Assembly: GCA_948099385.1 (NCBI GenBank)
Contig: CANUEZ040000161.1
Span: 3,596,001-3,660,000 of the forward strand
Reading direction: 5' to 3'
Length of the DNA: 64,000 bases
Source: Fasciola hepatica
Lineage: Eukaryota; Platyhelminthes; Trematoda; Plagiorchiida; Fasciolidae
A program made the position numbers and the translations under genes. This document shows positions 8,617-42,763 of this stretch, piece after piece. The notes under the pieces were generated by a model. It ran no database searches. It was not told where the DNA came from and saw nothing but the letters and a program-made list of their open reading frames with translations. How positions within the stretch are numbered: the stretch's first letter is position 1; the number at the start of each line of letters is the position of its first letter.

Positions 8617-8622
8617 GCGGAT

Positions 8623-16800: not shown

Positions 16801-18360
16801 TGTTCACTTCACGAAGTGTTTTTCAGGTTGGGTGTCCAGCGCACGGCCAGTCCTACCCACTAGTACCGGTTGCGGAACTCACTCTCTAGCTATCCTCGGA
16901 CTACCGCATCCAATACTGTCGATTCAAAATTGCATGCTCCCCATCCTTTTTTCTCCTTGGTACGCTCACCCGTAGTCCCTATCATCTGTTACCACCTTCC
17001 AGTTTTGTCGCTCTATCGCTGCATGCACACCTACCATTCTGTCCTTGCTCCTAACTCCTCTCACCACATCACCTCTTATTGCATGAAGTCACTATCGTCC
17101 TGACCACTCTTCTCTGTTGCCTCTCGCCAGTTTTTACTTTTTCCACCTGCCGTCATTGCCGGCCTCTATTCTCTATTCACTTGGTATTACCCTATACTCA
17201 TAATGCCCACTGATAGCATTCTTATACCTAACCGTCTTTCGTTTTGTTAGATCCTCCGCTGTTCTCCCTCCTCATACCCAGTTCAGTTACGCACCGGTCA
17301 CACCCACATCCGTAAACAGTCCTCTTATGAGAACTAGCCGCCCCAAACCTTTGCACCTTTACAGCCGTATTTGTTATCTAATCACCACCACCATATTTTT
17401 CTTTCTCCGCTCTGCGATTCTTCTGTGTTTATTTTCATTATGTAGTGTCCCGATTAGCATCCTCCTGCTTATTCCTCCTTTCGGTTGACCGCTGACAGGC
17501 AGCTCTCCAGTTCCACTGCCCCGACTCCGTCGCGTATTCTATTACTGGTTTTCCTATCCTGGTGCTTTCTGCTTCTTTCTTCTCTGCCTCCTTCGTGTTC
17601 CATCTGCAGTAAAATGGTCTGATTGTCCATGTCTTATCTATGTCTCTTCGGTCGTTGCCCTCATCTCCCAAGTTTGTCCAGCTATCCACACCGCCCTCAC
17701 CAAATGCGAAACCGATTTGCAATTCCCGCTTCAGCCATTACCACTTTAGTTCGCTCAAACACTACATGACTTTACTGGTGTATTTCGGTTGCTGTGTGAT
17801 TCATAAATTTAGAAATTGTGAATACCCCATGTTGACACGTACCGCTGTATTTTCTGATCTTGCCTTGTGCATGTTTGTTGACCACGGCCAAGAGATATAC
17901 AATTCAATTCCCGTCCCGTACATTGCCCGCCACAGGCACTTGCGGTGTGACTTTTAGTTTGGTTTGCTTTTCAATGTTCCACCGATTGTAAAGACAACGT
18001 TGCTCCATGATGTTCACCTACAGTCCCATATCTTTTGATATGCCACCACCCGATTCCTCTGGTTCGTCACCACACGTCGCACCTGCATTGATCAAATAAT
18101 TAGGCCCATTCTTACCTGACCTTTTCGATCCTATCATTCATCTTCCTTCGTTTATGATCTGCCGCTCACATTCGTCATCAGTTCTGTGCCTCCGCATTTT
18201 GTTTTTTTCTGTCTCTGTTGAGCCGCCATGTCCACCGTCATAAAGATGATTCACCACGATATTCCAAAGTTAATTCCACAACCATTTGATCTAACAATAC
18301 CTGCCCTCCTAATGACTGAAAATTTCTTTCTAGGACCCCATTGTTATTGCTCCCGCTCCT

Positions 18361-18362
<2 letters not shown>

Positions 18363-18400
<38 letters not shown>
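18363..18400. repeat. (TA)19 dinucleotide microsatellite
   Basis: There are 38 bases of uninterrupted alternating T and A within the pyrimidine-rich block. Open frames across it on both strands encode Ile-Tyr runs and are artefacts. Confidence 0.95.
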
Positions 18401-18403
<3 letters not shown>

Positions 18404-19051
18404 GCACACATATGTACATGTGCTCTCGCTCTGCATCTTGCAGTTCCTCGCCGGCCGTTTCTCATGCAATCACCCCGCTGACAGTCATGATATGCGTCCA
18501 TTCATTCTACATCTCTGCCGCACATCCACCGTATCCAAATTTCCTGAATCATTTTTGTCCTCTGTTCCACCCTTTAAGTCTTGTGTTGCTTGCCCCCTGT
18601 TTTACGATGAGTTTTGTGCCCTGTCCGCCGACCATCCATTGCGGAGCACCAATGCTTCATTGACATCTAATCCATTGCAGAGAACCTCTTTTCTCCATCG
18701 TCTCCCACTACTGCAGTTTATTACACCGATTTCTAGCTCTTCTCATGTGTATCAGTCGGCCTCAAGATGTCTCCACCCGGACCAGTCATACTCTCCGTTT
18801 GACCGTGACTTTCAAACTCGCCGGGCGTCTATCTGAATCCACCATCGGGTTCACTTAAACTCCTTATATTTTCTTCAGTGTGCATACACTTATCATACTT
18901 TCATCCCACTTTATTCCCCCTTCTGATCCTTTTTATCCCACTTTTCATGCAAATTTCCAAGTTTTCATGACTTATGTCCGCCCATTCCATCACTTGTTAG
19001 AACGTGACCGTGCATCTGGCATGCTTCGAGCGTCCCCGAAATAAGCCAATG

Positions 19052-21300: not shown

Positions 21301-21344
21301 AAATAACATAGAAGAGTAGATGTTCAACAAACCGTTGAGAGCCA

Positions 21345-21416
21345 GCCCGGATAGCCTTGTGGTTAAGGTGTTCGATTCACAATCGTTCACCCCGGGTTCG
21401 AGTCCCCGTGGGGGCT
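21345..21416 (+). ncRNA. tRNA-like head of array unit (Val-CAC-like), first of 54 copies
   Basis: A cloverleaf can be drawn: acceptor 21345-21351 with 21409-21415 (5 of 7 pairs, two G-G mismatches), D stem GCCT/AGGT (4 of 4 including G-T) with a GG-containing 8-base loop, anticodon stem 21371-21375/21383-21387 (only 3 of 5), 7-base loop TTCACAA with anticodon CAC, variable loop of 4, and T stem 4 of 5 with loop TTCGAGT. The B box (GGTTCGAGTCC, 21395-21405) is a perfect consensus; the A box (TAGCCTTGTGG, 21352-21362) departs at one position. Stem defects argue against a functional tRNA; a tRNA-derived SINE head with intact Pol III promoter fits better. The same element recurs at +400 steps up to 42545-42616. 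Two copies (28575, 32575) carry A to T at the last base of the 5' anticodon stem. Confidence 0.7.
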
Positions 21417-21479
21417 CGATGGATGTGCACTGCTGATGATTCCCAACAAGGATGAAACAGCTGTACAGTGCTTCCATGG

Positions 21480-21483
21480 TTTT
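21480..21483 (+). terminator. Possible Pol III terminator (TTTT) in array unit
   Basis: This is the first run of four T residues after the B box of the tRNA-like head, about 75 bases downstream of it. If the internal promoter is active, a transcript of roughly 140 bases would start near 21340 and end here. The site is repeated in every unit. It is inferred from sequence only. Confidence 0.35.
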
Positions 21484-24400
21484 CAATGGTGAGTTGAGCG
21501 TTCAAGCTGCATGATCAATCATATTATATACAAATCTAATCTCCTACTACTCAATTGCAAATAGTAACCAAGCTCTGTAGGTTGTTCATAACGGAATGCC
21601 TTCGTTGTACTTAGGCCCCTACAGAGAAGTCATCCATCATAGGAGTCGATCGCTGTGTGGGAGGCGGGTTGTTACCGTTCGAAGCCAGTGACGGAAGGGT
21701 GCTATATCATCTAGTGTAGATGTTCAACAAACCGTTGAGAGCCAGCCCGGATAGCCTTGTGGTTAAGGTGTTCGATTCACAATCGTTCACCCCGGGTTCG
21801 AGTCCCCGTGGGGGCTCGATGGATGTGCACTGCTGATGATTCCCAACAAGGATGAAACAGCTGTACAGTGCTTCCATGGTTTTCAATGGTGAGTTGAGCG
21901 TTCAAGCTGCATGATCAATCATATTATATACAAATCTAATCTCCTACTACTCAATTGCAAATAGTAACCAAGCTCTGTAGGTTGTTCATAACGGAATGCC
22001 TTCGTTGTACTTAGGCCCCTACAGAGAAGTCATCCATCATAGGAGTCGATCGCTGTGTGGGAGGCGGGTTGTTACCGTTCGAAGCCAGTGACGGAAGGGT
22101 GCTATATCATCTAGTGTAGATGTTCAACAAACCGTTGAGAGCCAGCCCGGATAGCCTTGTGGTTAAGGTGTTCGATTCACAATCGTTCACCCCGGGTTCG
22201 AGTCCCCGTGGGGGCTCGATGGATGTGCACTGCTGATGATTCCCAACAAGGATGAAACAGCTGTACAGTGCTTCCATGGTTTTCAATGGTGAGTTGAGCG
22301 TTCAAGCTGCATGATCAATCATATTATATACAAATCTAATCTCCTACTACTCAATTGCAAATAGTAACCAAGCTCTGTAGGTTGTTCATAACGGAATGCC
22401 TTCGTTGTACTTAGGCCCCTACAGAGAAGTCATCCATCATAGGAGTCGATCGCTGTGTGGGAGGCGGGTTGTTACCGTTCGAAGCCAGTGACGGAAGGGT
22501 GCTATATCATCTAGTGTAGATGTTCAACAAACCGTTGAGAGCCAGCCCGGATAGCCTTGTGGTTAAGGTGTTCGATTCACAATCGTTCACCCCGGGTTCG
22601 AGTCCCCGTGGGGGCTCGATGGATGTGCACTGCTGATGATTCCCAACAAGGATGAAACAGCTGTACAGTGCTTCCATGGTTTTCAATGGTGAGTTGAGCG
22701 TTCAAGCTGCATGATCAATCATATTATATACAAATCTAATCTCCTACTACTCAATTGCAAATAGTAACCAAGCTCTGTAGGTTGTTCATAACGGAATGCC
22801 TTCGTTGTACTTAGGCCCCTACAGAGAAGTCATCCATCATAGGAGTCGATCGCTGTGTGGGAGGCGGGTTGTTACCGTTCGAAGCCAGTGACGGAAGGGT
22901 GCTATATCATCTAGTGTAGATGTTCAACAAACCGTTGAGAGCCAGCCCGGATAGCCTTGTGGTTAAGGTGTTCGATTCACAATCGTTCACCCCGGGTTCG
23001 AGTCCCCGTGGGGGCTCGATGGATGTGCACTGCTGATGATTCCCAACAAGGATGAAACAGCTGTACAGTGCTTCCATGGTTTTCAATGGTGAGTTGAGCG
23101 TTCAAGCTGCATGATCAATCATATTATATACAAATCTAATCTCCTACTACTCAATTGCAAATAGTAACCAAGCTCTGTAGGTTGTTCATAACGGAATGCC
23201 TTCGTTGTACTTAGGCCCCTACAGAGAAGTCATCCATCATAGGAGTCGATCGCTGTGTGGGAGGCGGGTTGTTACCGTTCGAAGCCAGTGACGGAAGGGT
23301 GCTATATCATCTAGTGTAGATGTTCAACAAACCGTTGAGAGCCAGCCCGGATAGCCTTGTGGTTAAGGTGTTCGATTCACAATCGTTCACCCCGGGTTCG
23401 AGTCCCCGTGGGGGCTCGATGGATGTGCACTGCTGATGATTCCCAACAAGGATGAAACAGCTGTACAGTGCTTCCATGGTTTTCAATGGTGAGTTGAGCG
23501 TTCAAGCTGCATGATCAATCATATTATATACAAATCTAATCTCCTACTACTCAATTGCAAATAGTAACCAAGCTCTGTAGGTTGTTCATAACGGAATGCC
23601 TTCGTTGTACTTAGGCCCCTACAGAGAAGTCATCCATCATAGGAGTCGATCGCTGTGTGGGAGGCGGGTTGTTACCGTTCGAAGCCAGTGACGGAAGGGT
23701 GCTATATCATCTAGTGTAGATGTTCAACAAACCGTTGAGAGCCAGCCCGGATAGCCTTGTGGTTAAGGTGTTCGATTCACAATCGTTCACCCCGGGTTCG
23801 AGTCCCCGTGGGGGCTCGATGGATGTGCACTGCTGATGATTCCCAACAAGGATGAAACAGCTGTACAGTGCTTCCATGGTTTTCAATGGTGAGTTGAGCG
23901 TTCAAGCTGCATGATCAATCATATTATATACAAATCTAATCTCCTACTACTCAATTGCAAATAGTAACCAAGCTCTGTAGGTTGTTCATAACGGAATGCC
24001 TTCGTTGTACTTAGGCCCCTACAGAGAAGTCATCCATCATAGGAGTCGATCGCTGTGTGGGAGGCGGGTTGTTACCGTTCGAAGCCAGTGACGGAAGGGT
24101 GCTATATCATCTAGTGTAGATGTTCAACAAACCGTTGAGAGCCAGCCCGGATAGCCTTGTGGTTAAGGTGTTCGATTCACAATCGTTCACCCCGGGTTCG
24201 AGTCCCCGTGGGGGCTCGATGGATGTGCACTGCTGATGATTCCCAACAAGGATGAAACAGCTGTACAGTGCTTCCATGGTTTTCAATGGTGAGTTGAGCG
24301 TTCAAGCTGCATGATCAATCATATTATATACAAATCTAATCTCCTACTACTCAATTGCAAATAGTAACCAAGCTCTGTAGGTTGTTCATAACGGAATGCC

Positions 24401-27400
24401 TTCGTTGTACTTAGGCCCCTACAGAGAAGTCATCCATCATAGGAGTCGATCGCTGTGTGGGAGGCGGGTTGTTACCGTTCGAAGCCAGTGACGGAAGGGT
24501 GCTATATCATCTAGTGTAGATGTTCAACAAACCGTTGAGAGCCAGCCCGGATAGCCTTGTGGTTAAGGTGTTCGATTCACAATCGTTCACCCCGGGTTCG
24601 AGTCCCCGTGGGGGCTCGATGGATGTGCACTGCTGATGATTCCCAACAAGGATGAAACAGCTGTACAGTGCTTCCATGGTTTTCAATGGTGAGTTGAGCG
24701 TTCAAGCTGCATGATCAATCATATTATATACAAATCTAATCTCCTACTACTCAATTGCAAATAGTAACCAAGCTCTGTAGGTTGTTCATAACGGAATGCC
24801 TTCGTTGTACTTAGGCCCCTACAGAGAAGTCATCCATCATAGGAGTCGATCGCTGTGTGGGAGGCGGGTTGTTACCGTTCGAAGCCAGTGACGGAAGGGT
24901 GCTATATCATCTAGTGTAGATGTTCAACAAACCGTTGAGAGCCAGCCCGGATAGCCTTGTGGTTAAGGTGTTCGATTCACAATCGTTCACCCCGGGTTCG
25001 AGTCCCCGTGGGGGCTCGATGGATGTGCACTGCTGATGATTCCCAACAAGGATGAAACAGCTGTACAGTGCTTCCATGGTTTTCAATGGTGAGTTGAGCG
25101 TTCAAGCTGCATGATCAATCATATTATATACAAATCTAATCTCCTACTACTCAATTGCAAATAGTAACCAAGCTCTATAGGTTGTTCATAACGGAATGCC
25201 TTCGTTGTACTTAGGCCCCTACAGAGAAGTCATCCATCATAGGAGTCGATCGCTGTGTGGGAGGCGGGTTGTTACCGTTCGAAGCCAGTGACGGAAGGGT
25301 GCTATATCATCTAGTGTAGATGTTCAACAAACCGTTGAGAGCCAGCCCGGATAGCCTTGTGGTTAAGGTGTTCGATTCACAATCGTTCACCCCGGGTTCG
25401 AGTCCCCGTGAGGGCTCGATGGAGGTGCACTGCTGATGATTCCCAACAAGGATGAAACAGCTGTACAGTGCTTCCATGGTTTTCAATGGTGAGTTGAGCG
25501 TTCAAGCTGCATGATCAATCATATTATATACAAATCTAATCTCCTACTACTCAATTGCAAATAGTAACCAAGCTCTGTAGGTTGTTCATAACGGAATGCC
25601 TTCGTTGTACTTAGGCCCCTACAGAGAAGTCATCCATCATAGGAGTCGATCGCTGTGTGGGAGGCGGGTTGTTACCGTTCGAAGCCAGTGACGGAAGGGT
25701 GCTATATCATCTAGTGTAGATGTTCAACAAACCGTTGAGAGCCAGCCCGGATAGCCTTGTGGTTAAGGTGTTCGATTCACAATCGTTCACCCCGGGTTCG
25801 AGTCCCCGTGGGGGCTCGATGGATGTGCACTGCTGATGATTCCCAACAAGGATGAAACAGCTGTACAGTGCTTCCATGGTTTTCAATGGTGAGTTGAGCG
25901 TTCAAGCTGCATGATCAATCATATTATATACAAATCTAATCTCCTACTACTCAATTGCAAATAGTAACCAAGCTCTGTAGGTTGTTCATAACTGAATGCC
26001 TTCGTTGTACTTAGGCCCCTACAGAGAAGTCATCCATCATAGGAGTCGATCGCTGTGTGGGAGGCGGGTTGTTACCGTTCGAAGCCAGTGACGGAAGGGT
26101 GCTATATCATCTAGTGTAGATGTTCAACAAACCGTTGAGAGCCAGCCCGGATAGCCTTGTGGTTAAGGTGTTCGATTCACAATCGTTCACCCCGGGTTCG
26201 AGTCCCCGTGGGGGCTCGATGGATGTGCACTGCTGATGATTCCCAACAAGGATGAAACAGCTGTACAGTGCTTCCATGGTTTTCAATGGTGAGTTGAGCG
26301 TTCAAGCTGCATGATCAATCATATTATATACAAATCTAATCTCCTACTACTCAATTGCAAATAGTAACCAAGCTCTGTAGGTTGTTCATAACGGAATGCC
26401 TTCGTTGTACTTAGGCCCCTACAGAGAAGTCATCCATCATAGGAGTCGATCGCTGTGTGGGAGGCGGGTTGTTACCGTTCGAAGCCAGTGACGGAAGGGT
26501 GCTATATCATCTAGTGTAGATGTTCAACAAACCGTTGAGAGCCAGCCCGGATAGCCTTGTGGTTAAGGTGTTCGATTCACAATCGTTCACCCCGGGTTCG
26601 AGTCCCCGTGGGGGCTCGATGGATGTGCACTGCTGATGATTCCCAACAAGGATGAAACAGCTGTACAGTGCTTCCATGGTTTTCAATGGTGAGTTGAGCG
26701 TTCAAGCTGCATGATCAATCATATTATATACAAATCTAATCTCCTACTACTCAATTGCAAATAGTAACCAAGCTCTGTAGGTTGTTCATAACGGAATGCC
26801 TTCGTTGTACTTAGGCCCCTACAGAGAAGTCATCCATCATAGGAGTCGATCGCTGTGTGGGAGGCGGGTTGTTACCGTTCGAAGCCAGTGACGGAAGGGT
26901 GCTATATCATCTAGTGTAGATGTTCAACAAACCGTTGAGAGCCAGCCCGGATAGCCTTGTGGTTAAGGTGTTCGATTCACAATCGTTCACCCCGGGTTCG
27001 AGTCCCCGTGGGGGCTCGATGGATGTGCACTGCTGATGATTCCCAACAAGGATGAAACAGCTGTACAGTGCTTCCATGGTTTTCAATGGTGAGTTGAGCG
27101 TTCAAGCTGCATGATCAATCATATTATATACAAATCTAATCTCCTACTACTCAATTGCAAATAGTAACCAAGCTCTGTAGGTTGTTCATAACGGAATGCC
27201 TTCGTTGTACTTAGGCCCCTACAGAGAAGTCATCCATCATAGGAGTCGATCGCTGTGTGGGAGGCGGGTTGTTACCGTTCGAAGCCAGTGACGGAAGGGT
27301 GCTATATCATCTAGTGTAGATGTTCAACAAACCGTTGAGAGCCAGCCCGGATAGCCTTGTGGTTAAGGTGTTCGATTCACAATCGTTCACCCCGGGTTCG

Positions 27401-30400
27401 AGTCCCCGTGGGGGCTCGATGGATGTGCACTGCTGATGATTCCCAACAAGGATGAAACAGCTGTACAGTGCTTCCATGGTTTTCAATGGTGAGTTGAGCG
27501 TTCAAGCTGCATGATCAATCATATTATATACAAATCTAATCTCCTACTACTCAATTGCAAATAGTAACCAAGCTCTATAGGTTGTTCATAACGGAATGCC
27601 TTCGTTGTACTTAGGCCCCTACAGAGAAGTCATCCATCATAGGAGTCGATCGCTGTGTGGGAGGCGGGTTGTTACCGTTCGAAGCCAGTGACGGAAGGGT
27701 GCTATATCATCTAGTGTAGATGTTCAACAAACCGTTGAGAGCCAGCCCGGATAGCCTTGTGGTTAAGGTGTTCGATTCACAATCGTTCACCCCGGGTTCG
27801 AGTCCCCGTGGGGGCTCGATGGATGTGCACTGCTGATGATTCCCAACAAGGATGAAACAGCTGTACAGTGCTTCCATGGTTTTCAATGGTGAGTTGAGCG
27901 TTCAAGCTGCATGATCAATCATATTATATACAAATCTAATCTCCTACTACTCAATTGCAAATAGTAACCAAGCTCTGTAGGTTGTTCATAACGGAATGCC
28001 TTCGTTGTACTTAGGCCCCTACAGAGAAGTCATCCATCATAGGAGTCGATCGCTGTGTGGGAGGCGGGTTGTTACCGTTCGAAGCCAGTGACGGAAGGGT
28101 GCTATATCATCTAGTGTAGATGTTCAACAAACCGTTGAGAGCCAGCCCGGATAGCCTTGTGGTTAAGGTGTTCGATTCACAATCGTTCACCCCGGGTTCG
28201 AGTCCCCGTGGGGGCTCGATGGATGTGCACTGCTGATGATTCCCAACAAGGATGAAACAGCTGTACAGTGCTTCCATGGTTTTCAATGGTGAGTTGAGCG
28301 TTCAAGCTGCATGATCAATCATATTATATACAAATCTAATCTCCTACTACTCAATTGCAAATAGTAACCAAGCTCTGTAGGTTGTTCATAACGGAATGCC
28401 TTCGTTGTACTTAGGCCCCTACAGAGAAGTCATCCATCATAGGAGTCGATCGCTGTGTGGGAGGCGGGTTGTTACCGTTCGAAGCCAGTGACGGAAGGGT
28501 GCTATATCATCTAGTGTAGATGTTCAACAAACCGTTGAGAGCCAGCCCGGATAGCCTTGTGGTTAAGGTGTTCGTTTCACAATCGTTCACCCCGGGTTCG
28601 AGTCCCCGTGGGGGCTCGATGGATGTGCACTGCTGATGATTCCCAACAAGGATGAAACAGCTGTACAGTGCTTCCATGGTTTTCAATGGTGAGTTGAGCG
28701 TTCAAGCTGCATGATCAATCATATTATATACAAATCTAATCTCCTACTACTCAATTGCAAATAGTAACCAAGCTCTATAGGTTGTTCATAACGGAATGCC
28801 TTCGTTGTACTTAGGCCCCTACAGAGAAGTCATCCATCATAGGAGTCGATCGCTGTGTGGGAGGCGGGTTGTTACCGTTCGAAGCCAGTGACGGAAGGGT
28901 GCTATATCATCTAGTGTAGATGTTCAACAAACCGTTGAGAGCCAGCCCGGATAGCCTTGTGGTTAAGGTGTTCGATTCACAATCGTTCACCCCGGGTTCG
29001 AGTCCCCGTGGGGGCTCGATGGATGTGCACTGCTGATGATTCCCAACAAGGATGAAACAGCTGTACAGTGCTTCCATGGTTTTCAATGGTGAGTTGAGCG
29101 TTCAAGCTGCATGATCAATCATATTATATACAAATCTAATCTCCTACTACTCAATTGCAAATAGTAACCAAGCTCTGTAGGTTGTTCATAACGGAATGCC
29201 TTCGTTGTACTTAGGCCCCTACAGAGAAGTCATCCATCATAGGAGTCGATCGCTGTGTGGGAGGCGGGTTGTTACCGTTCGAAGCCAGTGACGGAAGGGT
29301 GCTATATCATCTAGTGTAGATGTTCAACAAACCGTTGAGAGCCAGCCCGGATAGCCTTGTGGTTAAGGTGTTCGATTCACAATCGTTCACCCCGGGTTCG
29401 AGTCCCCGTGGGGGCTCGATGGATGTGCACTGCTGATGATTCCCAACAAGGATGAAACAGCTGTACAGTGCTTCCATGGTTTTCAATGGTGAGTTGAGCG
29501 TTCAAGCTGCATGATCAATCATATTATATACAAATCTAATCTCCTACTACTCAATTGCAAATAGTAACCAAGCTCTGTAGGTTGTTCATAACGGAATGCC
29601 TTCGTTGTACTTAGGCCCCTACAGAGAAGTCATCCATCATAGGAGTCGATCGCTGTGTGGGAGGCGGGTTGTTACCGTTCGAAGCCAGTGACGGAAGGGT
29701 GCTATATCATCTAGTGTAGATGTTCAACAAACCGTTGAGAGCCAGCCCGGATAGCCTTGTGGTTAAGGTGTTCGATTCACAATCGTTCACCCCGGGTTCG
29801 AGTCCCCGTGGGGGCTCGATGGATGTGCACTGCTGATGATTCCCAACAAGGATGAAACAGCTGTACAGTGCTTCCATGGTTTTCAATGGTGAGTTGAGCG
29901 TTCAAGCTGCATGATCAATCATATTATATACAAATCTAATCTCCTACTACTCAATTGCAAATAGTAACCAAGCTCTGTAGGTTGTTCATAACGGAATGCC
30001 TTCGTTGTACTTAGGCCACTACAGAGAAGTCATCCATCATAGGAGTCGATCGCTGTGTGGGAGGCGGGTTGTTACCGTTCGAAGCCAGTGACGGAAGGGT
30101 GCTATATCATCTAGTGTAGATGTTCAACAAACCGTTGAGAGCCAGCCCGGATAGCCTTGTGGTTAAGGTGTTCGATTCACAATCGTTCACCCCGGGTTCG
30201 AGTCCCCGTGGGGGCTCGATGGATGTGCACTGCTGATGATTCCCAACAAGGATGAAACAGCTGTACAGTGCTTCCATGGTTTTCAATGGTGAGTTGAGCG
30301 TTCAAGCTGCATGATCAATCATATTATATACAAATCTAATCTCCTACTACTCAATTGCAAATAGTAACCAAGCTCTATAGGTTGTTCATAACGGAATGCC

Positions 30401-33400
30401 TTCGTTGTACTTAGGCCCCTACAGAGAAGTCATCCATCATAGGAGTCGATCGCTGTGTGGGAGGCGGGTTGTTACCGTTCGAAGCCAGTGACGGAAGGGT
30501 GCTATATCATCTAGTGTAGATGTTCAACAAACCGTTGAGAGCCAGCCCGGATAGCCTTGTGGTTAAGGTGTTCGATTCACAATCGTTCACCCCGGGTTCG
30601 AGTCCCCGTGGGGGCTCGATGGATGTGCACTGCTGATGATTCCCAACAAGGATGAAACAGCTGTACAGTGCTTCCATGGTTTTCAATGGTGAGTTGAGCG
30701 TTCAAGCTGCATGATCAATCATATTATATACAAATCTAATCTCCTACTACTCAATTGCAAATAGTAACCAAGCTCTGTAGGTTGTTCATAACGGAATGCC
30801 TTCGTTGTACTTAGGCCCCTACAGAGAAGTCATCCATCATAGGAGTCGATCGCTGTGTGGGAGGCGGGTTGTTACCGTTCGAAGCCAGTGACGGAAGGGT
30901 GCTATATCATCTAGTGTAGATGTTCAACAAACCGTTGAGAGCCAGCCCGGATAGCCTTGTGGTTAAGGTGTTCGATTCACAATCGTTCACCCCGGGTTCG
31001 AGTCCCCGTGGGGGCTCGATGGATGTGCACTGCTGATGATTCCCAACAAGGATGAAACAGCTGTACAGTGCTTCCATGGTTTTCAATGGTGAGTTGAGCG
31101 TTCAAGCTGCATGATCAATCATATTATATACAAATCTAATCTCCTACTACTCAATTGCAAATAGTAACCAAGCTCTGTAGGTTGTTCATAACGGAATGCC
31201 TTCGTTGTACTTAGGCCCCTACAGAGAAGTCATCCATCATAGGAGTCGATCGCTGTGTGGGAGGCGGGTTGTTACCGTTCGAAGCCAGTGACGGAAGGGT
31301 GCTATATCATCTAGTGTAGATGTTCAACAAACCGTTGAGAGCCAGCCCGGATAGCCTTGTGGTTAAGGTGTTCGATTCACAATCGTTCACCCCGGGTTCG
31401 AGTCCCCGTGGGGGCTCGATGGATGTGCACTGCTGATGATTCCCAACAAGGATGAAACAGCTGTACAGTGCTTCCATGGTTTTCAATGGTGAGTTGAGCG
31501 TTCAAGCTGCATGATCAATCATATTATATACAAATCTAATCTCCTACTACTCAATTGCAAATAGTAACCAAGCTCTGTAGGTTGTTCATAACGGAATGCC
31601 TTCGTTGTACTTAGGCCCCTACAGAGAAGTCATCCATCATAGGAGTCGATCGCTGTGTGGGAGGCGGGTTGTTACCGTTCGAAGCCAGTGACGGAAGGGT
31701 GCTATATCATCTAGTGTAGATGTTCAACAAACCGTTGAGAGCCAGCCCGGATAGCCTTGTGGTTAAGGTGTTCGATTCACAATCGTTCACCCCGGGTTCG
31801 AGTCCCCGTGGGGGCTCGATGGATGTGCACTGCTGATGATTCCCAACAAGGATGAAACAGCTGTACAGTGCTTCCATGGTTTTCAATGGTGAGTTGAGCG
31901 TTCAAGCTGCATGATCAATCATATTATATACAAATCTAATCTCCTACTACTCAATTGCAAATAGTAACCAAGCTCTGTAGGTTGTTCATAACGGAATGCC
32001 TTCGTTGTACTTAGGCCCCTACAGAGAAGTCATCCATCATAGGAGTCGATCGCTGTGTGGGAGGCGGGTTGTTACCGTTCGAAGCCAGTGACGGAAGGGT
32101 GCTATATCATCTAGTGTAGATGTTCAACAAACCGTTGAGAGCCAGCCCGGATAGCCTTGTGGTTAAGGTGTTCGATTCACAATCGTTCACCCCGGGTTCG
32201 AGTCCCCGTGGGGGCTCGATGGATGTGCACTGCTGATGATTCCCAACAAGGATGAAACAGCTGTACAGTGCTTCCATGGTTTTCAATGGTGAGTTGAGCG
32301 TTCAAGCTGCATGATCAATCATATTATATACAAATCTAATCTCCTACTACTCAATTGCAAATAGTAACCAAGCTCTGTAGGTTGTTCATAACGGAATGCC
32401 TTCGTTGTACTTAGGCCCCTACAGAGAAGTCATCCATCATAGGAGTCGATCGCTGTGTGGGAGGCGGGTTGTTACCGTTCGAAGCCAGTGACGGAAGGGT
32501 GCTATATCATCTAGTGTAGATGTTCAACAAACCGTTGAGAGCCAGCCCGGATAGCCTTGTGGTTAAGGTGTTCGTTTCACAATCGTTCACCCCGGGTTCG
32601 AGTCCCCGTGGGGGCTCGATGGATGTGCACTGCTGATGATTCCCAACAAGGATGAAACAGCTGTACAGTGCTTCCATGGTTTTCAATGGTGAGTTGAGCG
32701 TTCAAGCTGCATGATCAATCATATTATATACAAATCTAATCTCCTACTACTCAATTGCAAATAGTAACCAAGCTCTATAGGTTGTTCATAACGGAATGCC
32801 TTCGTTGTACTTAGGCCCCTACAGAGAAGTCATCCATCATAGGAGTCGATCGCTGTGTGGGAGGCGGGTTGTTACCGTTCGAAGCCAGTGACGGAAGGGT
32901 GCTATATCATCTAGTGTAGATGTTCAACAAACCGTTGAGAGCCAGCCCGGATAGCCTTGTGGTTAAGGTGTTCGATTCACAATCGTTCACCCCGGGTTCG
33001 AGTCCCCGTGGGGGCTCGATGGATGTGCACTGCTGATGATTCCCAACAAGGATGAAACAGCTGTACAGTGCTTCCATGGTTTTCAATGGTGAGTTGAGCG
33101 TTCAAGCTGCATGATCAATCATATTATATACAAATCTAATCTCCTACTACTCAATTGCAAATAGTAACCAAGCTCTGTAGGTTGTTCATAACGGAATGCC
33201 TTCGTTGTACTTAGGCCCCTACAGAGAAGTCATCCATCATAGGAGTCGATCGCTGTGTGGGAGGCGGGTTGTTACCGTTCGAAGCCAGTGACGGAAGGGT
33301 GCTATATCATCTAGTGTAGATGTTCAACAAACCGTTGAGAGCCAGCCCGGATAGCCTTGTGGTTAAGGTGTTCGATTCACAATCGTTCACCCCGGGTTCG

Positions 33401-36400
33401 AGTCCCCGTGGGGGCTCGATGGATGTGCACTGCTGATGATTCCCAACAAGGATGAAACAGCTGTACAGTGCTTCCATGGTTTTCAATGGTGAGTTGAGCG
33501 TTCAAGCTGCATGATCAATCATATTATATACAAATCTAATCTCCTACTACTCAATTGCAAATAGTAACCAAGCTCTGTAGGTTGTTCATAACGGAATGCC
33601 TTCGTTGTACTTAGGCCCCTACAGAGAAGTCATCCATCATAGGAGTCGATCGCTGTGTGGGAGGCGGGTTGTTACCGTTCGAAGCCAGTGACGGAAGGGT
33701 GCTATATCATCTAGTGTAGATGTTCAACAAACCGTTGAGAGCCAGCCCGGATAGCCTTGTGGTTAAGGTGTTCGATTCACAATCGTTCACCCCGGGTTCG
33801 AGTCCCCGTGGGGGCTCGATGGATGTGCACTGCTGATGATTCCCAACAAGGATGAAACAGCTGTACAGTGCTTCCATGGTTTTCAATGGTGAGTTGAGCG
33901 TTCAAGCTGCATGATCAATCATATTATATACAAATCTAATCTCCTACTACTCAATTGCAAATAGTAACCAAGCTCTGTAGGTTGTTCATAACGGAATGCC
34001 TTCGTTGTACTTAGGCCCCTACAGAGAAGTCATCCATCATAGGAGTCGATCGCTGTGTGGGAGGCGGGTTGTTACCGTTCGAAGCCAGTGACGGAAGGGT
34101 GCTATATCATCTAGTGTAGATGTTCAACAAACCGTTGAGAGCCAGCCCGGATAGCCTTGTGGTTAAGGTGTTCGATTCACAATCGTTCACCCCGGGTTCG
34201 AGTCCCCGTGGGGGCTCGATGGATGTGCACTGCTGATGATTCCCAACAAGGATGAAACAGCTGTACAGTGCTTCCATGGTTTTCAATGGTGAGTTGAGCG
34301 TTCAAGCTGCATGATCAATCATATTATATACAAATCTAATCTCCTACTACTCAATTGCAAATAGTAACCAAGCTCTGTAGGTTGTTCATAACGGAATGCC
34401 TTCGTTGTACTTAGGCCCCTACAGAGAAGTCATCCATCATAGGAGTCGATCGCTGTGTGGGAGGCGGGTTGTTACCGTTCGAAGCCAGTGACGGAAGGGT
34501 GCTATATCATCTAGTGTAGATGTTCAACAAACCGTTGAGAGCCAGCCCGGATAGCCTTGTGGTTAAGGTGTTCGATTCACAATCGTTCACCCCGGGTTCG
34601 AGTCCCCGTGGGGGCTCGATGGATGTGCACTGCTGATGATTCCCAACAAGGATGAAACAGCTGTACAGTGCTTCCATGGTTTTCAATGGTGAGTTGAGCG
34701 TTCAAGCTGCATGATCAATCATATTATATACAAATCTAATCTCCTACTACTCAATTGCAAATAGTAACCAAGCTCTGTAGGTTGTTCATAACGGAATGCC
34801 TTCGTTGTACTTAGGCCCCTACAGAGAAGTCATCCATCATAGGAGTCGATCGCTGTGTGGGAGGCGGGTTGTTACCGTTCGAAGCCAGTGACGGAAGGGT
34901 GCTATATCATCTAGTGTAGATGTTCAACAAACCGTTGAGAGCCAGCCCGGATAGCCTTGTGGTTAAGGTGTTCGATTCACAATCGTTCACCCCGGGTTCG
35001 AGTCCCCGTGGGGGCTCGATGGATGTGCACTGCTGATGATTCCCAACAAGGATGAAACAGCTGTACAGTGCTTCCATGGTTTTCAATGGTGAGTTGAGCG
35101 TTCAAGCTGCATGATCAATCATATTATATACAAATCTAATCTCCTACTACTCAATTGCAAATAGTAACCAAGCTCTGTAGGTTGTTCATAACGGAATGCC
35201 TTCGTTGTACTTAGGCCCCTACAGAGAAGTCATCCATCATAGGAGTCGATCGCTGTGTGGGAGGCGGGTTGTTACCGTTCGAAGCCAGTGACGGAAGGGT
35301 GCTATATCATCTAGTGTAGATGTTCAACAAACCGTTGAGAGCCAGCCCGGATAGCCTTGTGGTTAAGGTGTTCGATTCACAATCGTTCACCCCGGGTTCG
35401 AGTCCCCGTGGGGGCTCGATGGATGTGCACTGCTGATGATTCCCAACAAGGATGAAACAGCTGTACAGTGCTTCCATGGTTTTCAATGGTGAGTTGAGCG
35501 TTCAAGCTGCATGATCAATCATATTATATACAAATCTAATCTCCTACTACTCAATTGCAAATAGTAACCAAGCTCTGTAGGTTGTTCATAACGGAATGCC
35601 TTCGTTGTACTTAGGCCCCTACAGAGAAGTCATCCATCATAGGAGTCGATCGCTGTGTGGGAGGCGGGTTGTTACCGTTCGAAGCCAGTGACGGAAGGGT
35701 GCTATATCATCTAGTGTAGATGTTCAACAAACCGTTGAGAGCCAGCCCGGATAGCCTTGTGGTTAAGGTGTTCGATTCACAATCGTTCACCCCGGGTTCG
35801 AGTCCCCGTGGGGGCTCGATGGATGTGCACTGCTGATGATTCCCAACAAGGATGAAACAGCTGTACAGTGCTTCCATGGTTTTCAATGGTGAGTTGAGCG
35901 TTCAAGCTGCATGATCAATCATATTATATACAAATCTAATCTCCTACTACTCAATTGCAAATAGTAACCAAGCTCTGTAGGTTGTTCATAACGGAATGCC
36001 TTCGTTGTACTTAGGCCCCTACAGAGAAGTCATCCATCATAGGAGTCGATCGCTGTGTGGGAGGCGGGTTGTTACCGTTCGAAGCCAGTGACGGAAGGGT
36101 GCTATATCATCTAGTGTAGATGTTCAACAAACCGTTGAGAGCCAGCCCGGATAGCCTTGTGGTTAAGGTGTTCGATTCACAATCGTTCACCCCGGGTTCG
36201 AGTCCCCGTGGGGGCTCGATGGATGTGCACTGCTGATGATTCCCAACAAGGATGAAACAGCTGTACAGTGCTTCCATGGTTTTCAATGGTGAGTTGAGCG
36301 TTCAAGCTGCATGATCAATCATATTATATACAAATCTAATCTCCTACTACTCAATTGCAAATAGTAACCAAGCTCTGTAGGTTGTTCATAACGGAATGCC

Positions 36401-39400
36401 TTCGTTGTACTTAGGCCCCTACAGAGAAGTCATCCATCATAGGAGTCGATCGCTGTGTGGGAGGCGGGTTGTTACCGTTCGAAGCCAGTGACGGAAGGGT
36501 GCTATATCATCTAGTGTAGATGTTCAACAAACCGTTGAGAGCCAGCCCGGATAGCCTTGTGGTTAAGGTGTTCGATTCACAATCGTTCACCCCGGGTTCG
36601 AGTCCCCGTGGGGGCTCGATGGATGTGCACTGCTGATGATTCCCAACAAGGATGAAACAGCTGTACAGTGCTTCCATGGTTTTCAATGGTGAGTTGAGCG
36701 TTCAAGCTGCATGATCAATCATATTATATACAAATCTAATCTCCTACTACTCAATTGCAAATAGTAACCAAGCTCTGTAGGTTGTTCATAACGGAATGCC
36801 TTCGTTGTACTTAGGCCCCTACAGAGAAGTCATCCATCATAGGAGTCGATCGCTGTGTGGGAGGCGGGTTGTTACCGTTCGAAGCCAGTGACGGAAGGGT
36901 GCTATATCATCTAGTGTAGATGTTCAACAAACCGTTGAGAGCCAGCCCGGATAGCCTTGTGGTTAAGGTGTTCGATTCACAATCGTTCACCCCGGGTTCG
37001 AGTCCCCGTGGGGGCTCGATGGATGTGCACTGCTGATGATTCCCAACAAGGATGAAACAGCTGTACAGTGCTTCCATGGTTTTCAATGGTGAGTTGAGCG
37101 TTCAAGCTGCATGATCAATCATATTATATACAAATCTAATCTCCTACTACTCAATTGCAAATAGTAACCAAGCTCTGTAGGTTGTTCATAACGGAATGCC
37201 TTCGTTGTACTTAGGCCCCTACAGAGAAGTCATCCATCATAGGAGTCGATCGCTGTGTGGGAGGCGGGTTGTTACCGTTCGAAGCCAGTGACGGAAGGGT
37301 GCTATATCATCTAGTGTAGATGTTCAACAAACCGTTGAGAGCCAGCCCGGATAGCCTTGTGGTTAAGGTGTTCGATTCACAATCGTTCACCCCGGGTTCG
37401 AGTCCCCGTGGGGGCTCGATGGATGTGCACTGCTGATGATTCCCAACAAGGATGAAACAGCTGTACAGTGCTTCCATGGTTTTCAATGGTGAGTTGAGCG
37501 TTCAAGCTGCATGATCAATCATATTATATACAAATCTAATCTCCTACTACTCAATTGCAAATAGTAACCAAGCTCTGTAGGTTGTTCATAACGGAATGCC
37601 TTCGTTGTACTTAGGCCCCTACAGAGAAGTCATCCATCATAGGAGTCGATCGCTGTGTGGGAGGCGGGTTGTTACCGTTCGAAGCCAGTGACGGAAGGGT
37701 GCTATATCATCTAGTGTAGATGTTCAACAAACCGTTGAGAGCCAGCCCGGATAGCCTTGTGGTTAAGGTGTTCGATTCACAATCGTTCACCCCGGGTTCG
37801 AGTCCCCGTGGGGGCTCGATGGATGTGCACTGCTGATGATTCCCAACAAGGATGAAACAGCTGTACAGTGCTTCCATGGTTTTCAATGGTGAGTTGAGCG
37901 TTCAAGCTGCATGATCAATCATATTATATACAAATCTAATCTCCTACTACTCAATTGCAAATAGTAACCAAGCTCTGTAGGTTGTTCATAACGGAATGCC
38001 TTCGTTGTACTTAGGCCCCTACAGAGAAGTCATCCATCATAGGAGTCGATCGCTGTGTGGGAGGCGGGTTGTTACCGTTCGAAGCCAGTGACGGAAGGGT
38101 GCTATATCATCTAGTGTAGATGTTCAACAAACCGTTGAGAGCCAGCCCGGATAGCCTTGTGGTTAAGGTGTTCGATTCACAATCGTTCACCCCGGGTTCG
38201 AGTCCCCGTGGGGGCTCGATGGATGTGCACTGCTGATGATTCCCAACAAGGATGAAACAGCTGTACAGTGCTTCCATGGTTTTCAATGGTGAGTTGAGCG
38301 TTCAAGCTGCATGATCAATCATATTATATACAAATCTAATCTCCTACTACTCAATTGCAAATAGTAACCAAGCTCTGTAGGTTGTTCATAACGGAATGCC
38401 TTCGTTGTACTTAGGCCCCTACAGAGAAGTCATCCATCATAGGAGTCGATCGCTGTGTGGGAGGCGGGTTGTTACCGTTCGAAGCCAGTGACGGAAGGGT
38501 GCTATATCATCTAGTGTAGATGTTCAACAAACCGTTGAGAGCCAGCCCGGATAGCCTTGTGGTTAAGGTGTTCGATTCACAATCGTTCACCCCGGGTTCG
38601 AGTCCCCGTGGGGGCTCGATGGATGTGCACTGCTGATGATTCCCAACAAGGATGAAACAGCTGTACAGTGCTTCCATGGTTTTCAATGGTGAGTTGAGCG
38701 TTCAAGCTGCATGATCAATCATATTATATACAAATCTAATCTCCTACTACTCAATTGCAAATAGTAACCAAGCTCTGTAGGTTGTTCATAACGGAATGCC
38801 TTCGTTGTACTTAGGCCCCTACAGAGAAGTCATCCATCATAGGAGTCGATCGCTGTGTGGGAGGCGGGTTGTTACCGTTCGAAGCCAGTGACGGAAGGGT
38901 GCTATATCATCTAGTGTAGATGTTCAACAAACCGTTGAGAGCCAGCCCGGATAGCCTTGTGGTTAAGGTGTTCGATTCACAATCGTTCACCCCGGGTTCG
39001 AGTCCCCGTGGGGGCTCGATGGATGTGCACTGCTGATGATTCCCAACAAGGATGAAACAGCTGTACAGTGCTTCCATGGTTTTCAATGGTGAGTTGAGCG
39101 TTCAAGCTGCATGATCAATCATATTATATACAAATCTAATCTCCTACTACTCAATTGCAAATAGTAACCAAGCTCTGTAGGTTGTTCATAACGGAATGCC
39201 TTCGTTGTACTTAGGCCCCTACAGAGAAGTCATCCATCATAGGAGTCGATCGCTGTGTGGGAGGCGGGTTGTTACCGTTCGAAGCCAGTGACGGAAGGGT
39301 GCTATATCATCTAGTGTAGATGTTCAACAAACCGTTGAGAGCCAGCCCGGATAGCCTTGTGGTTAAGGTGTTCGATTCACAATCGTTCACCCCGGGTTCG

Positions 39401-42400
39401 AGTCCCCGTGGGGGCTCGATGGATGTGCACTGCTGATGATTCCCAACAAGGATGAAACAGCTGTACAGTGCTTCCATGGTTTTCAATGGTGAGTTGAGCG
39501 TTCAAGCTGCATGATCAATCATATTATATACAAATCTAATCTCCTACTACTCAATTGCAAATAGTAACCAAGCTCTGTAGGTTGTTCATAACGGAATGCC
39601 TTCGTTGTACTTAGGCCCCTACAGAGAAGTCATCCATCATAGGAGTCGATCGCTGTGTGGGAGGCGGGTTGTTACCGTTCGAAGCCAGTGACGGAAGGGT
39701 GCTATATCATCTAGTGTAGATGTTCAACAAACCGTTGAGAGCCAGCCCGGATAGCCTTGTGGTTAAGGTGTTCGATTCACAATCGTTCACCCCGGGTTCG
39801 AGTCCCCGTGGGGGCTCGATGGATGTGCACTGCTGATGATTCCCAACAAGGATGAAACAGCTGTACAGTGCTTCCATGGTTTTCAATGGTGAGTTGAGCG
39901 TTCAAGCTGCATGATCAATCATATTATATACAAATCTAATCTCCTACTACTCAATTGCAAATAGTAACCAAGCTCTGTAGGTTGTTCATAACGGAATGCC
40001 TTCGTTGTACTTAGGCCACTACAGAGAAGTCATCCATCATAGGAGTCGATCGCTGTGTGGGAGGCGGGTTGTTACCGTTCGAAGCCAGTGACGGAAGGGT
40101 GCTATATCATCTAGTGTAGATGTTCAACAAACCGTTGAGAGCCAGCCCGGATAGCCTTGTGGTTAAGGTGTTCGATTCACAATCGTTCACCCCGGGTTCG
40201 AGTCCCCGTGGGGGCTCGATGGATGTGCACTGCTGATGATTCCCAACAAGGATGAAACAGCTGTACAGTGCTTCCATGGTTTTCAATGGTGAGTTGAGCG
40301 TTCAAGCTGCATGATCAATCATATTATATACAAATCTAATCTCCTACTACTCAATTGCAAATAGTAACCAAGCTCTGTAGGTTGTTCATAACGGAATGCC
40401 TTCGTTGTACTTAGGCCCCTACAGAGAAGTCATCCATCATAGGAGTCGATCGCTGTGTGGGAGGCGGGTTGTTACCGTTCGAAGCCAGTGACGGAAGGGT
40501 GCTATATCATCTAGTGTAGATGTTCAACAAACCGTTGAGAGCCAGCCCGGATAGCCTTGTGGTTAAGGTGTTCGATTCACAATCGTTCACCCCGGGTTCG
40601 AGTCCCCGTGGGGGCTCGATGGATGTGCACTGCTGATGATTCCCAACAAGGATGAAACAGCTGTACAGTGCTTCCATGGTTTTCAATGGTGAGTTGAGCG
40701 TTCAAGCTGCATGATCAATCATATTATATACAAATCTAATCTCCTACTACTCAATTGCAAATAGTAACCAAGCTCTGTAGGTTGTTCATAACGGAATGCC
40801 TTCGTTGTACTTAGGCCCCTACAGAGAAGTCATCCATCATAGGAGTCGATCGCTGTGTGGGAGGCGGGTTGTTACCGTTCGAAGCCAGTGACGGAAGGGT
40901 GCTATATCATCTAGTGTAGATGTTCAACAAACCGTTGAGAGCCAGCCCGGATAGCCTTGTGGTTAAGGTGTTCGATTCACAATCGTTCACCCCGGGTTCG
41001 AGTCCCCGTGGGGGCTCGATGGATGTGCACTGCTGATGATTCCCAACAAGGATGAAACAGCTGTACAGTGCTTCCATGGTTTTCAATGGTGAGTTGAGCG
41101 TTCAAGCTGCATGATCAATCATATTATATACAAATCTAATCTCCTACTACTCAATTGCAAATAGTAACCAAGCTCTGTAGGTTGTTCATAACGGAATGCC
41201 TTCGTTGTACTTAGGCCCCTACAGAGAAGTCATCCATCATAGGAGTCGATCGCTGTGTGGGAGGCGGGTTGTTACCGTTCGAAGCCAGTGACGGAAGGGT
41301 GCTATATCATCTAGTGTAGATGTTCAACAAACCGTTGAGAGCCAGCCCGGATAGCCTTGTGGTTAAGGTGTTCGATTCACAATCGTTCACCCCGGGTTCG
41401 AGTCCCCGTGGGGGCTCGATGGATGTGCACTGCTGATGATTCCCAACAAGGATGAAACAGCTGTACAGTGCTTCCATGGTTTTCAATGGTGAGTTGAGCG
41501 TTCAAGCTGCATGATCAATCATATTATATACAAATCTAATCTCCTACTACTCAATTGCAAATAGTAACCAAGCTCTGTAGGTTGTTCATAACGGAATGCC
41601 TTCGTTGTACTTAGGCCCCTACAGAGAAGTCATCCATCATAGGAGTCGATCGCTGTGTGGGAGGCGGGTTGTTACCGTTCGAAGCCAGTGACGGAAGGGT
41701 GCTATATCATCTAGTGTAGATGTTCAACAAACCGTTGAGAGCCAGCCCGGATAGCCTTGTGGTTAAGGTGTTCGATTCACAATCGTTCACCCCGGGTTCG
41801 AGTCCCCGTGGGGGCTCGATGGATGTGCACTGCTGATGATTCCCAACAAGGATGAAACAGCTGTACAGTGCTTCCATGGTTTTCAATGGTGAGTTGAGCG
41901 TTCAAGCTGCATGATCAATCATATTATATACAAATCTAATCTCCTACTACTCAATTGCAAATAGTAACCAAGCTCTGTAGGTTGTTCATAACGGAATGCC
42001 TTCGTTGTACTTAGGCCCCTACAGAGAAGTCATCCATCATAGGAGTCGATCGCTGTGTGGGAGGCGGGTTGTTACCGTTCGAAGCCAGTGACGGAAGGGT
42101 GCTATATCATCTAGTGTAGATGTTCAACAAACCGTTGAGAGCCAGCCCGGATAGCCTTGTGGTTAAGGTGTTCGATTCACAATCGTTCACCCCGGGTTCG
42201 AGTCCCCGTGGGGGCTCGATGGATGTGCACTGCTGATGATTCCCAACAAGGATGAAACAGCTGTACAGTGCTTCCATGGTTTTCAATGGTGAGTTGAGCG
42301 TTCAAGCTGCATGATCAATCATATTATATACAAATCTAATCTCCTACTACTCAATTGCAAATAGTAACCAAGCTCTGTAGGTTGTTCATAACGGAATGCC

Positions 42401-42763
42401 TTCGTTGTACTTAGGCCCCTACAGAGAAGTCATCCATCATAGGAGTCGATCGCTGTGTGGGAGGCGGGTTGTTACCGTTCGAAGCCAGTGACGGAAGGGT
42501 GCTATATCATCTAGTGTAGATGTTCAACAAACCGTTGAGAGCCAGCCCGGATAGCCTTGTGGTTAAGGTGTTCGATTCACAATCGTTCACCCCGGGTTCG
42601 AGTCCCCGTGGGGGCTCGATGGATGTGCACTGCTGATGATTCCCAACAAGGATGAAACAGCTGTACAGTGCTTCCATGGTTTTCAATGGTGAGTTGAGCG
42701 TTCAAGCTGCATGATCAATCATATTATATACAAATCTAATCTCCTACTACTCAATTGCAAATA

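What the first reader, a model, noticed from the sequence alone, without database searches (positions are those of the whole stretch)
21316..42763. 21-kb satellite of 54 nearly identical 400-bp units, each with a tRNA-like Pol III head
Seen directly: exact 400-bp periodicity over 21.4 kb, no length changes noticed, about a dozen substitutions in total, and a perfect B box in every unit. Known: tRNA-derived SINEs rarely form long homogeneous satellites, and tRNA gene arrays normally contain folding tRNAs. Here the head folds badly (two acceptor mismatches, two anticodon-stem mismatches), so the unit looks like a SINE-headed sequence turned into a satellite. This is inferred to be a recent or continuously homogenised expansion, possibly with dozens of Pol III start sites side by side.
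Basis: partly seen in the sequence, partly recalled or inferred. Interest (0 to 1): 0.75.

Follow-up and report, generated by a model that had tools for sequence, protein, structure and literature searches.

The report
Self-cutting-RNA satellite with tRNA-like heads
A 21-kb block of 54 almost identical 400-bp repeats, in what looks like a flatworm genome, carries in every repeat a degenerate tRNA-like start signal followed directly by a predicted self-cutting RNA (hammerhead ribozyme), so it belongs with the known self-cutting satellite repeats of blood flukes and other animals rather than being just an odd tRNA-headed repeat.

Summary
The array is real: window 21316-42763, period 400 bp, 53.6 copies, 12 substitutions in 53 full units (44 identical), no indels. 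Each unit has a tRNA-Val(CAC)-like head with intact B box and poor cloverleaf. tRNA-like Pol III boxes plus hammerhead in a tandem repeat is the make-up of schistosome SM-alpha, a relative of metazoan retrozymes; S. mansoni has hammerhead satellites of 399-403 bp. I read this as a new member of that kind, probably in a non-schistosome flatworm. Likely mechanism: multi-unit RNA self-cleaves at GUA^C into 400-nt pieces that may circularise. A U-U mismatch at the base of helix II and a 2-bp helix III match an axolotl hammerhead that cuts far better as a dimer, and a two-unit RNA is predicted to fold as a double hammerhead (helix III P about 0.9 at 37 C); invertebrate hammerheads with similar helix III cut well alone, however. 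Activity, expression, circles, copy number and host species are untested.

The parts
21316..42763 (+). tandem array, 53.6 copies of a 400-bp unit
21345..21416 (+). tRNA-Val(CAC)-like head of unit 1 (unit 30-101), repeated every 400 bp in all 54 units; 5 non-standard stem pairs
21352..21362 (+). A-box-like TAGCCTTGTGG (unit 37-47), loose match
21395..21405 (+). B box GGTTCGAGTCC (unit 80-90), unchanged in every unit
21427..21471 (+). type I hammerhead ribozyme of unit 1 (unit 112-156); 54 of 54 units
   Evidence: RF00163 28.8 bits (curated cut-off 34); descriptor
21433..21439 (+). hammerhead core CTGATGA (unit 118-124)
21454..21457 (+). hammerhead core GAAA (unit 139-142)
21457..21464 (+). palindromic helix III ACAGCTGT (unit 142-149), able to pair with the next copy
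21465..21466 (+). predicted cleavage GUA^C between unit 150 and 151
   Evidence: position computed; cleavage itself inferred
21480..21483 (+). only TTTT of the unit's + strand (165-168), possible weak Pol III terminator just after helix I
21478..21502 (+). 5' side of a long predicted stem (13 bp + 10 bp, unit 163-187) that pairs with unit 4-28 of the next unit (21719-21743) and folds the body away from head and ribozyme
28575..28575 (+). A60T of unit 19 (same in unit 29 at 32575), in the anticodon stem; tRNA score falls to 28.7

Best explanation
The array is a tandem, non-coding ribozyme repeat of the SM-alpha / metazoan non-LTR retrozyme kind. Each unit is a tRNA-like Pol III promoter head, a type I hammerhead ribozyme directly after it, and a structured body of about 260 nt. 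Shown from sequence: the array, the head, the predicted hammerhead in every unit, near-identity of units. Inferred: RNA polymerase (from the internal Pol III boxes or by outside read-through) makes multi-unit RNA; [quoted passage not shown] a host ligase may close them into circles; reverse transcription of such RNA by another element's enzyme, or DNA-level exchange, makes and homogenises new tandem copies. The unit is a selfish element; no host function is claimed.
For: Hammerhead: RF00163 at unit 112-156 full length, E 1.1e-4 on 1.2 kb and 0.0057 per unit on the window, 54 of 54 units, no other match up to E 1 in the window. Descriptor: 54 of 54 units, 0 in flanks, 0 on the minus strand, 0 in 5 Mb simulated; with one guard added, 19 hits in 200 Mb of simulated single-strand DNA, 1 of them with helix I of 6 bp or more as here. 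Helices I and III and the cores CUGAUGA, GAAA and GUA^C are canonical. Head: RF00005 33.1 bits, B box intact. Kind: tandem 150-450-bp repeats with type I hammerheads (PMC7229834); S. mansoni hammerhead families of 332-335, 399-402, 403 and 415-428 bp with up to 450 tandem copies (PMC8490949); SM-alpha-like elements read as tRNA-Gln by tRNA finders (PMC2770079), S. mansoni hammerhead elements bearing A and B boxes (PMC2576457), and 7 of 16 hammerhead-like small-RNA clusters of S. haematobium lying in SINE/tRNA repeats (PMC5993326). Dimer action: U-U at the base of helix II and a 2-bp helix III with tetraloop are the features of axolotl HHR_Amex2, which cuts 22% in an hour as a monomer and much better as a dimer (PMC7229834 section 15); a U-U there is the best tolerated mismatch (PMC3088659); a two-unit RNA has the double hammerhead as minimum-energy and centroid structure, helix III pairs P 0.86-0.93 at 37 C and 0.67-0.72 at 25 C. 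None of the 12 ORFs of 150 aa or more in the window lies in the array.
Against: 28.8 bits is under Rfam's curated 34. Units are so alike that conservation across them is not independent evidence: 12 substitutions over 400 positions would put only about 1.4 in the 45-nt ribozyme, so finding 0 says nothing; no diverged relatives with compensatory changes were found. Helix II starts with a mismatch. PMC7229834 says that most invertebrate retrozyme hammerheads, which have a similar helix III, cut well as single motifs, so a 2-bp helix III alone does not argue for dimers. The single-unit fold blocks the core (GCUG with CAGC, P 0.86-0.99), but the Rfam consensus hammerhead is mis-folded by the same program by the same 5 kcal/mol, so this is weak. 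In a three-unit RNA only copies 1 and 3 pair as a dimer and copy 2 stays blocked. The dimer is favoured by only 2.2 (37 C) or 1.2 kcal/mol (25 C). The ribozyme stretch folds no better than shuffles (z -0.4). The paired fraction of the circle (0.645) is like that of 60 shuffles (0.630), although its energy is lower (z -4.1). No target-site duplication or poly(A) at the edges, and neither edge lies at the cleavage site. TTTT right after the ribozyme could stop Pol III before a second unit.
Confidence: 0.78

Rival explanations
1. A tRNA-headed SINE that was amplified at the DNA level into a satellite; the hammerhead is a passive remnant and the array spreads only by unequal exchange or rolling-circle DNA. 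(Overlaps with the best explanation: DNA exchange for homogenisation and ribozyme for RNA processing can both hold.)
For: No target-site duplication, arbitrary edges; variants shared by scattered units (262A in 5 units, 60T+262A in units 19 and 29, 303A in units 22 and 47), which suggests exchange or conversion between units; adjacent units are no more alike than all pairs (mean 0.46 vs 0.44 differences per 400 bp).
Against: All 54 predicted ribozymes are intact; tandem hammerhead repeats of this size are known to be processed RNAs in other animals (PMC7229834).
Confidence: 0.35
2. Each unit is a short Pol III gene: start near the head, run through the hammerhead, stop at TTTT (unit 165-168), about 140 nt; the ribozyme trims the 3' end of a tRNA-like RNA. 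No multi-unit RNA is needed.
For: The hammerhead ends just before the only TTTT of the unit; helix I is complete before it.
Against: A TTTT in 400 bp is expected by chance and is a weak stop signal (recalled). The single-unit hammerhead shares features with one that cuts poorly alone and its predicted fold is blocked (with the caveat). SM-alpha is described as long multimeric transcripts (recalled from Ferbeyre 1998, not held).
Confidence: 0.2
3. A cluster of real tRNA-Val genes.
For: ARAGORN calls tRNA-Val(CAC) in 52 of 54 units.
Against: Five non-standard stem pairs, 33 bits, minimum-energy fold not a cloverleaf.
Confidence: 0.02
4. Assembly inflation: a short array or a dispersed element stretched by the assembler.
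For: 44 of 53 units identical; own genome and reads could not be examined.
Against: Distinct variants at scattered units and unrelated flanks on both sides; the unit itself and its ribozyme do not depend on copy number.
Confidence: 0.12

Closest known systems
SM-alpha / W36.2 (and W25.2, W26.2, W27.2) hammerhead satellites of Schistosoma mansoni
   Same: tandem arrays of 332-428-bp units with a type I hammerhead (PMC8490949); tRNA-like sequence (PMC2770079) and A and B boxes (PMC2576457) reported for SM-alpha-type elements
   Different: tRNA-Val-like rather than tRNA-Gln-like head; U-U at helix II base; no sequence of those repeats could be aligned here beyond the Rfam consensus; host probably not a schistosome (BEL protein 46% to Schistosoma species; window GC 43-52%, against about 35% recalled for Schistosoma)
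metazoan non-LTR retrozymes (coral, mussel, axolotl)
   Same: type I hammerhead in tandem repeats of 150-450 bp, GC under 50%, no LTR (PMC7229834); axolotl HHR_Amex2 shares the U-U mismatch and 2-bp helix III
   Different: those have RNA evidence; a tRNA-like head is not mentioned in the sections and passages I saw
tRNA-derived SINEs
   Same: Pol III-type head
   Different: long homogeneous tandem array, ribozyme, no tail, no dispersed copy in the window
newt satellite 2
   Same: tandem hammerhead satellite whose two neighbouring copies cut as a dimer with an elongated helix III (PMC6155905, passage)
   Different: about 330 bp; its promoter was not looked up

Membership tests
metazoan non-LTR retrozyme | type I hammerhead motif in the repeat | tested here: met
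   54 of 54 units by RF00163 (28.8 bits, under the curated 34) and by descriptor
metazoan non-LTR retrozyme | tandem repeats of 150-450 bp, dimers to large multimers | tested here: met
   53.6 x 400 bp
metazoan non-LTR retrozyme | low GC (under 50% in the text, under 45% in a figure legend of PMC7229834) | tested here: inconclusive
   47.4-47.5% inside the array: meets the first, not the second
metazoan non-LTR retrozyme | no protein coding | tested here: met
   none of 12 ORFs of 150 aa or more lies in the array
metazoan non-LTR retrozyme | target-site duplications longer than 4 bp when present | tested here: inconclusive
   none recognised at the array edges, best shared word 5 bp; not obligatory
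metazoan non-LTR retrozyme | expressed as linear and circular unit-length RNA; self-cleavage | not testable with these tools
   no RNA data
SM-alpha family | tRNA-like sequence with A and B boxes together with a type I hammerhead (order in SM-alpha not seen in the passages) | tested here: met
SM-alpha family | common descent in sequence with SM-alpha | tested here: inconclusive
   only the 45-nt Rfam consensus was at hand; matches at core and loop II
SM-alpha family | many dispersed copies in the genome | not tested
functional tRNA gene | cloverleaf with paired stems | tested here: not met
   5 non-standard stem pairs; MFE fold is not a cloverleaf
tRNA-derived SINE | 3' tail (poly-A or simple repeat) and target-site duplication | tested here: not met
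   right edge ends inside a unit with no tail; no duplication recognised. Applies to the array as a whole, not to a lost ancestor

The most novel reading that the evidence does not exclude
A tandem-gated ribozyme element: the hammerhead works only when two neighbouring units in one transcript pair through the palindromic helix III into a double hammerhead, whereas the released 400-nt RNA or circle folds back (GCUG with CAGC) and cannot cut itself open again. The tandem satellite state would then be a required part of the element's life cycle, and the tRNA-like head its own promoter: one repeat that is promoter, processing machine and satellite at once, and, if the host is a fluke other than a schistosome, independent of any W chromosome.
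Probability: 0.22. Interest if true: 0.62.

Novelty: new member of a known kind. Interest (0 to 1): 0.42.

Why it matters
It puts a tRNA-headed hammerhead satellite, best known from schistosomes, into what looks like another flatworm lineage, with 54 near-identical copies and a clean prediction (400-nt RNAs ending at GUA^C, better cutting by two units than by one) that a simple in vitro transcription test can settle. It also shows that a low-scoring hammerhead, under the Rfam cut-off, can be overlooked in a satellite.

Tried and rejected
Functional tRNA-Val cluster: rejected, 5 non-standard stem pairs and non-cloverleaf fold. Plain SINE: no tail, no target-site duplication recognised, no copy in the flanks (longest blastn piece 28 bp at 82%, E 0.68). 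Micro-RNA family matches at 1623-1729 and 18353-18425 lie on the AT microsatellites, far under their cut-offs. The unit's ribozyme core in viral contigs: 0 exact matches. Own genome: the genome search not answered in 8 tries. Paper searches bearing on a prior report: hammerhead ribozyme + satellite + schistosom + tRNA, 16 papers; hammerhead + trematod + SINE, 10; retrozyme, 34; hammerhead ribozyme with Fasciola, 4, with Clonorchis, 1; tRNA-derived SINE + satellite DNA + tandem array, 0; hammerhead + tandem repeat + RNA polymerase III + platyhelminth, 0. I saw listings, and passages or sections of 8 papers, so absence from print is not claimed; PMC7229834 itself says in a passage that hammerhead repeats occur in platyhelminths. 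A hammerhead core as a search term found no paper.

Against my reading: see the Against line; above all, the monomer-block prediction is not specific because the Rfam consensus control behaves alike, and invertebrate hammerheads with similar helix III are reported to cut well alone.

What I saw of papers: PMC7229834 abstract, passages, sections 13, 15 and 17; PMC8490949 abstract, passages and section 11; PMC2770079, PMC3088659, PMC7761336, PMC6155905, PMC2576457, PMC5993326 passages; PMC10879173 listing and start of abstract; Ferbeyre 1998 not held, recalled or as cited by others.

Full report
What is there. The window holds one long tandem array at 21316-42763 with a period of exactly 400 bp and 53.6 copies. 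Within it the identity at lag 400 is 99.9% against 22.5-27.7% at neighbouring lags. The 53 full units carry 12 substitutions in 9 units and no indels; unit 54 stops after its position 248. 44 of 53 are identical, there are 6 types, and the mean pairwise difference is 0.109%. Some variants recur in scattered units (G262A in units 10, 16, 19, 23 and 29; A60T with G262A in units 19 and 29; C303A in units 22 and 47), which is not expected of independent mutations and points to exchange or conversion between units. The flanks hold no relative of the unit (longest blastn piece 28 bp at 82%, E 0.68), no target-site duplication was recognised (best shared word 5 bp) and neither edge is at a functional boundary of the unit.

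The head. Unit 30-101 matches the tRNA model at 33.1 bits, cut-off 29, with 2 non-standard pairs in the acceptor stem, 2 in the anticodon stem and 1 in the T stem. All 54 units match, 52 above the cut-off; units 19 and 29, which carry A60T, score 28.7. ARAGORN reads tRNA-Val(CAC) in 52 units. The B box GGTTCGAGTCC is unchanged in all units, an A-box-like stretch lies at unit 37-47, and the minimum-energy fold of the head is not a cloverleaf. It is a Pol III-type head, not a tRNA gene.

The ribozyme. Searching three units with all Rfam families at a relaxed threshold gave a full-length match to the type I hammerhead (RF00163) at unit 112-156, 10 nt after the head: 28.8 bits, E 1.1e-4 for 1.2 kb, below the curated cut-off of 34. 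On the whole window all 54 units match it and no other place does up to E 1. An independent descriptor (CTGANGA, GAAA, at least 3 of 4 helix II pairs, helix III, NUH site, helix I of at least 4 bp) finds 54 of 54 units and nothing in the flanks, on the other strand or in 5 Mb of simulated DNA; with one guard added it finds 19 places in 200 Mb of simulated DNA of the flanks' dinucleotide make-up, 1 of them with helix I of 6 bp or more, which the unit has. The core is CUGAUGA at unit 118 and GAAA at 139; cleavage would be GUA^C after unit 150. Helix II begins with a U-U mismatch; natural hammerheads with that mismatch exist and it is the best tolerated one (PMC3088659, passage). None of the 12 substitutions falls in the 45 nt, but only about 1.4 would be expected there, so this is no evidence of selection.

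How it probably works. Helix III is the palindrome ACAGCUGU: 2 bp and an AGCU loop within one unit, or 8 bp between two units. The Rfam consensus hammerhead is palindromic there too. In the axolotl, the hammerhead family with a 2-bp helix III and a U-U mismatch at the base of helix II cuts 22% in an hour as a monomer and much better as a dimer (PMC7229834, section 15). Against a need for dimers, the same paper says most invertebrate retrozyme hammerheads, with a similar helix III, cut well singly. Folding 479 nt of the array from one ribozyme to the next, without constraints, gives a double hammerhead as both minimum-energy and centroid structure, with both cores open and the body folded away on a 13-bp plus 10-bp stem. 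The dimer helix III has P 0.86-0.93 at 37 C and 0.67-0.72 at 25 C; penalising the dimer pairs costs 2.2 and 1.2 kcal/mol. A single ribozyme is predicted to be blocked by GCUG-CAGC pairing with P 0.86-0.99. Three cautions: the Rfam consensus hammerhead is also predicted to mis-fold, by the same 5 kcal/mol; in a three-unit RNA only copies 1 and 3 pair as a dimer while copy 2 stays blocked; and the ribozyme stretch alone folds no better than shuffles (z -0.4), although a whole unit does (z -5.0). From this I infer: multi-unit transcript, double-hammerhead cutting into 400-nt RNA with 5'-OH and cyclic-phosphate ends, possible closure to circles by a host ligase, and spread by reverse transcription of such RNA or by DNA exchange. 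Cutting, circles and spread are not shown here. The only TTTT of the unit lies at 165-168, just after the ribozyme; if it stops Pol III, the transcript would be a head-plus-ribozyme RNA of about 140 nt instead.

Compared with the known. Tandem repeats of 150-450 bp with type I hammerheads are described as widely but patchily spread over most metazoan phyla, from dimers to 62-mers in a coral, as non-LTR retrozymes making linear and circular RNAs (PMC7229834, sections 13, 15 and 17 read). In S. mansoni the hammerhead-bearing satellite families are W36.2 (SM-alpha, 332-335 bp), W26.2 (399-402 bp, about 147-153 copies), W27.2 (403 bp, 101 copies) and W25.2 (415-428 bp); 3 of 5 tested W25/W36 sequences cut in vitro, the other 2 having a changed core or cleavage site (PMC8490949, section 11 and passages). 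SM-alpha-like elements are read as tRNA-Gln-TTG by tRNA finders (PMC2770079, passage) and S. mansoni hammerhead elements carry Pol III A and B boxes (PMC2576457, passage). The present unit therefore has a known make-up. Whether it descends from SM-alpha could not be tested because no full SM-alpha sequence was at hand.

Host. For the BEL/Pao protein at 8617-11706 the best hits are unnamed (57% and 55% identity); the first named animals are Calicophoron daubneyi (49%), Dicrocoelium dendriticum (48%) and Schistosoma guineensis (46%), 120 of 3469 hits being listed. GC is 43-52% along the window, against about 35% recalled for Schistosoma. A flatworm, probably a fluke other than a schistosome, is likely but not proven. 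The own-genome search did not complete (8 calls).

Verdict.

Noticed in passing
L002, L003, L004, L007, L011, L014, L019, L024, L026 (IMG/VR contigs): A pattern of T-loop, 10-40 nt, hammerhead core gave 41 viral contigs; 13 of 41 also pass a looser hammerhead descriptor (no chance control run for it), and in 9 of these 13 ARAGORN finds a tRNA holding the T-loop (the other 28 loci were not scanned for tRNAs; L002 and L014 carry the same ribozyme and are not independent). tRNA genes directly followed by hammerheads look like a recurring arrangement in phage-like contigs, compare theta ribozymes beside phage tRNAs (PMC10879173, listing only).
   Followed up: partly
6856-11706: BEL/Pao retrotransposon in open stretches at 6856-8058, 8033-8575 and 8617-11706 (DUF1759 in the first; Peptidase_A17, integrase and DUF5641 in the third; the second not scanned).
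   Followed up: partly
1645-1700 and 18363-18400: Pure (AT)n and (TA)n microsatellites; source of spurious micro-RNA family matches.
   Followed up: yes
21573-21581 with 21618-21626 (unit 258-266 with 303-311): Extra hairpin CTCTGTAGG...CCTACAGAG in the body of each unit, z -2.4 on its own. Both recurrent body variants (G262A in 5 units, C303A in 2 units) fall in this stem and each would break a pair, none compensated. Role unknown.
   Followed up: no
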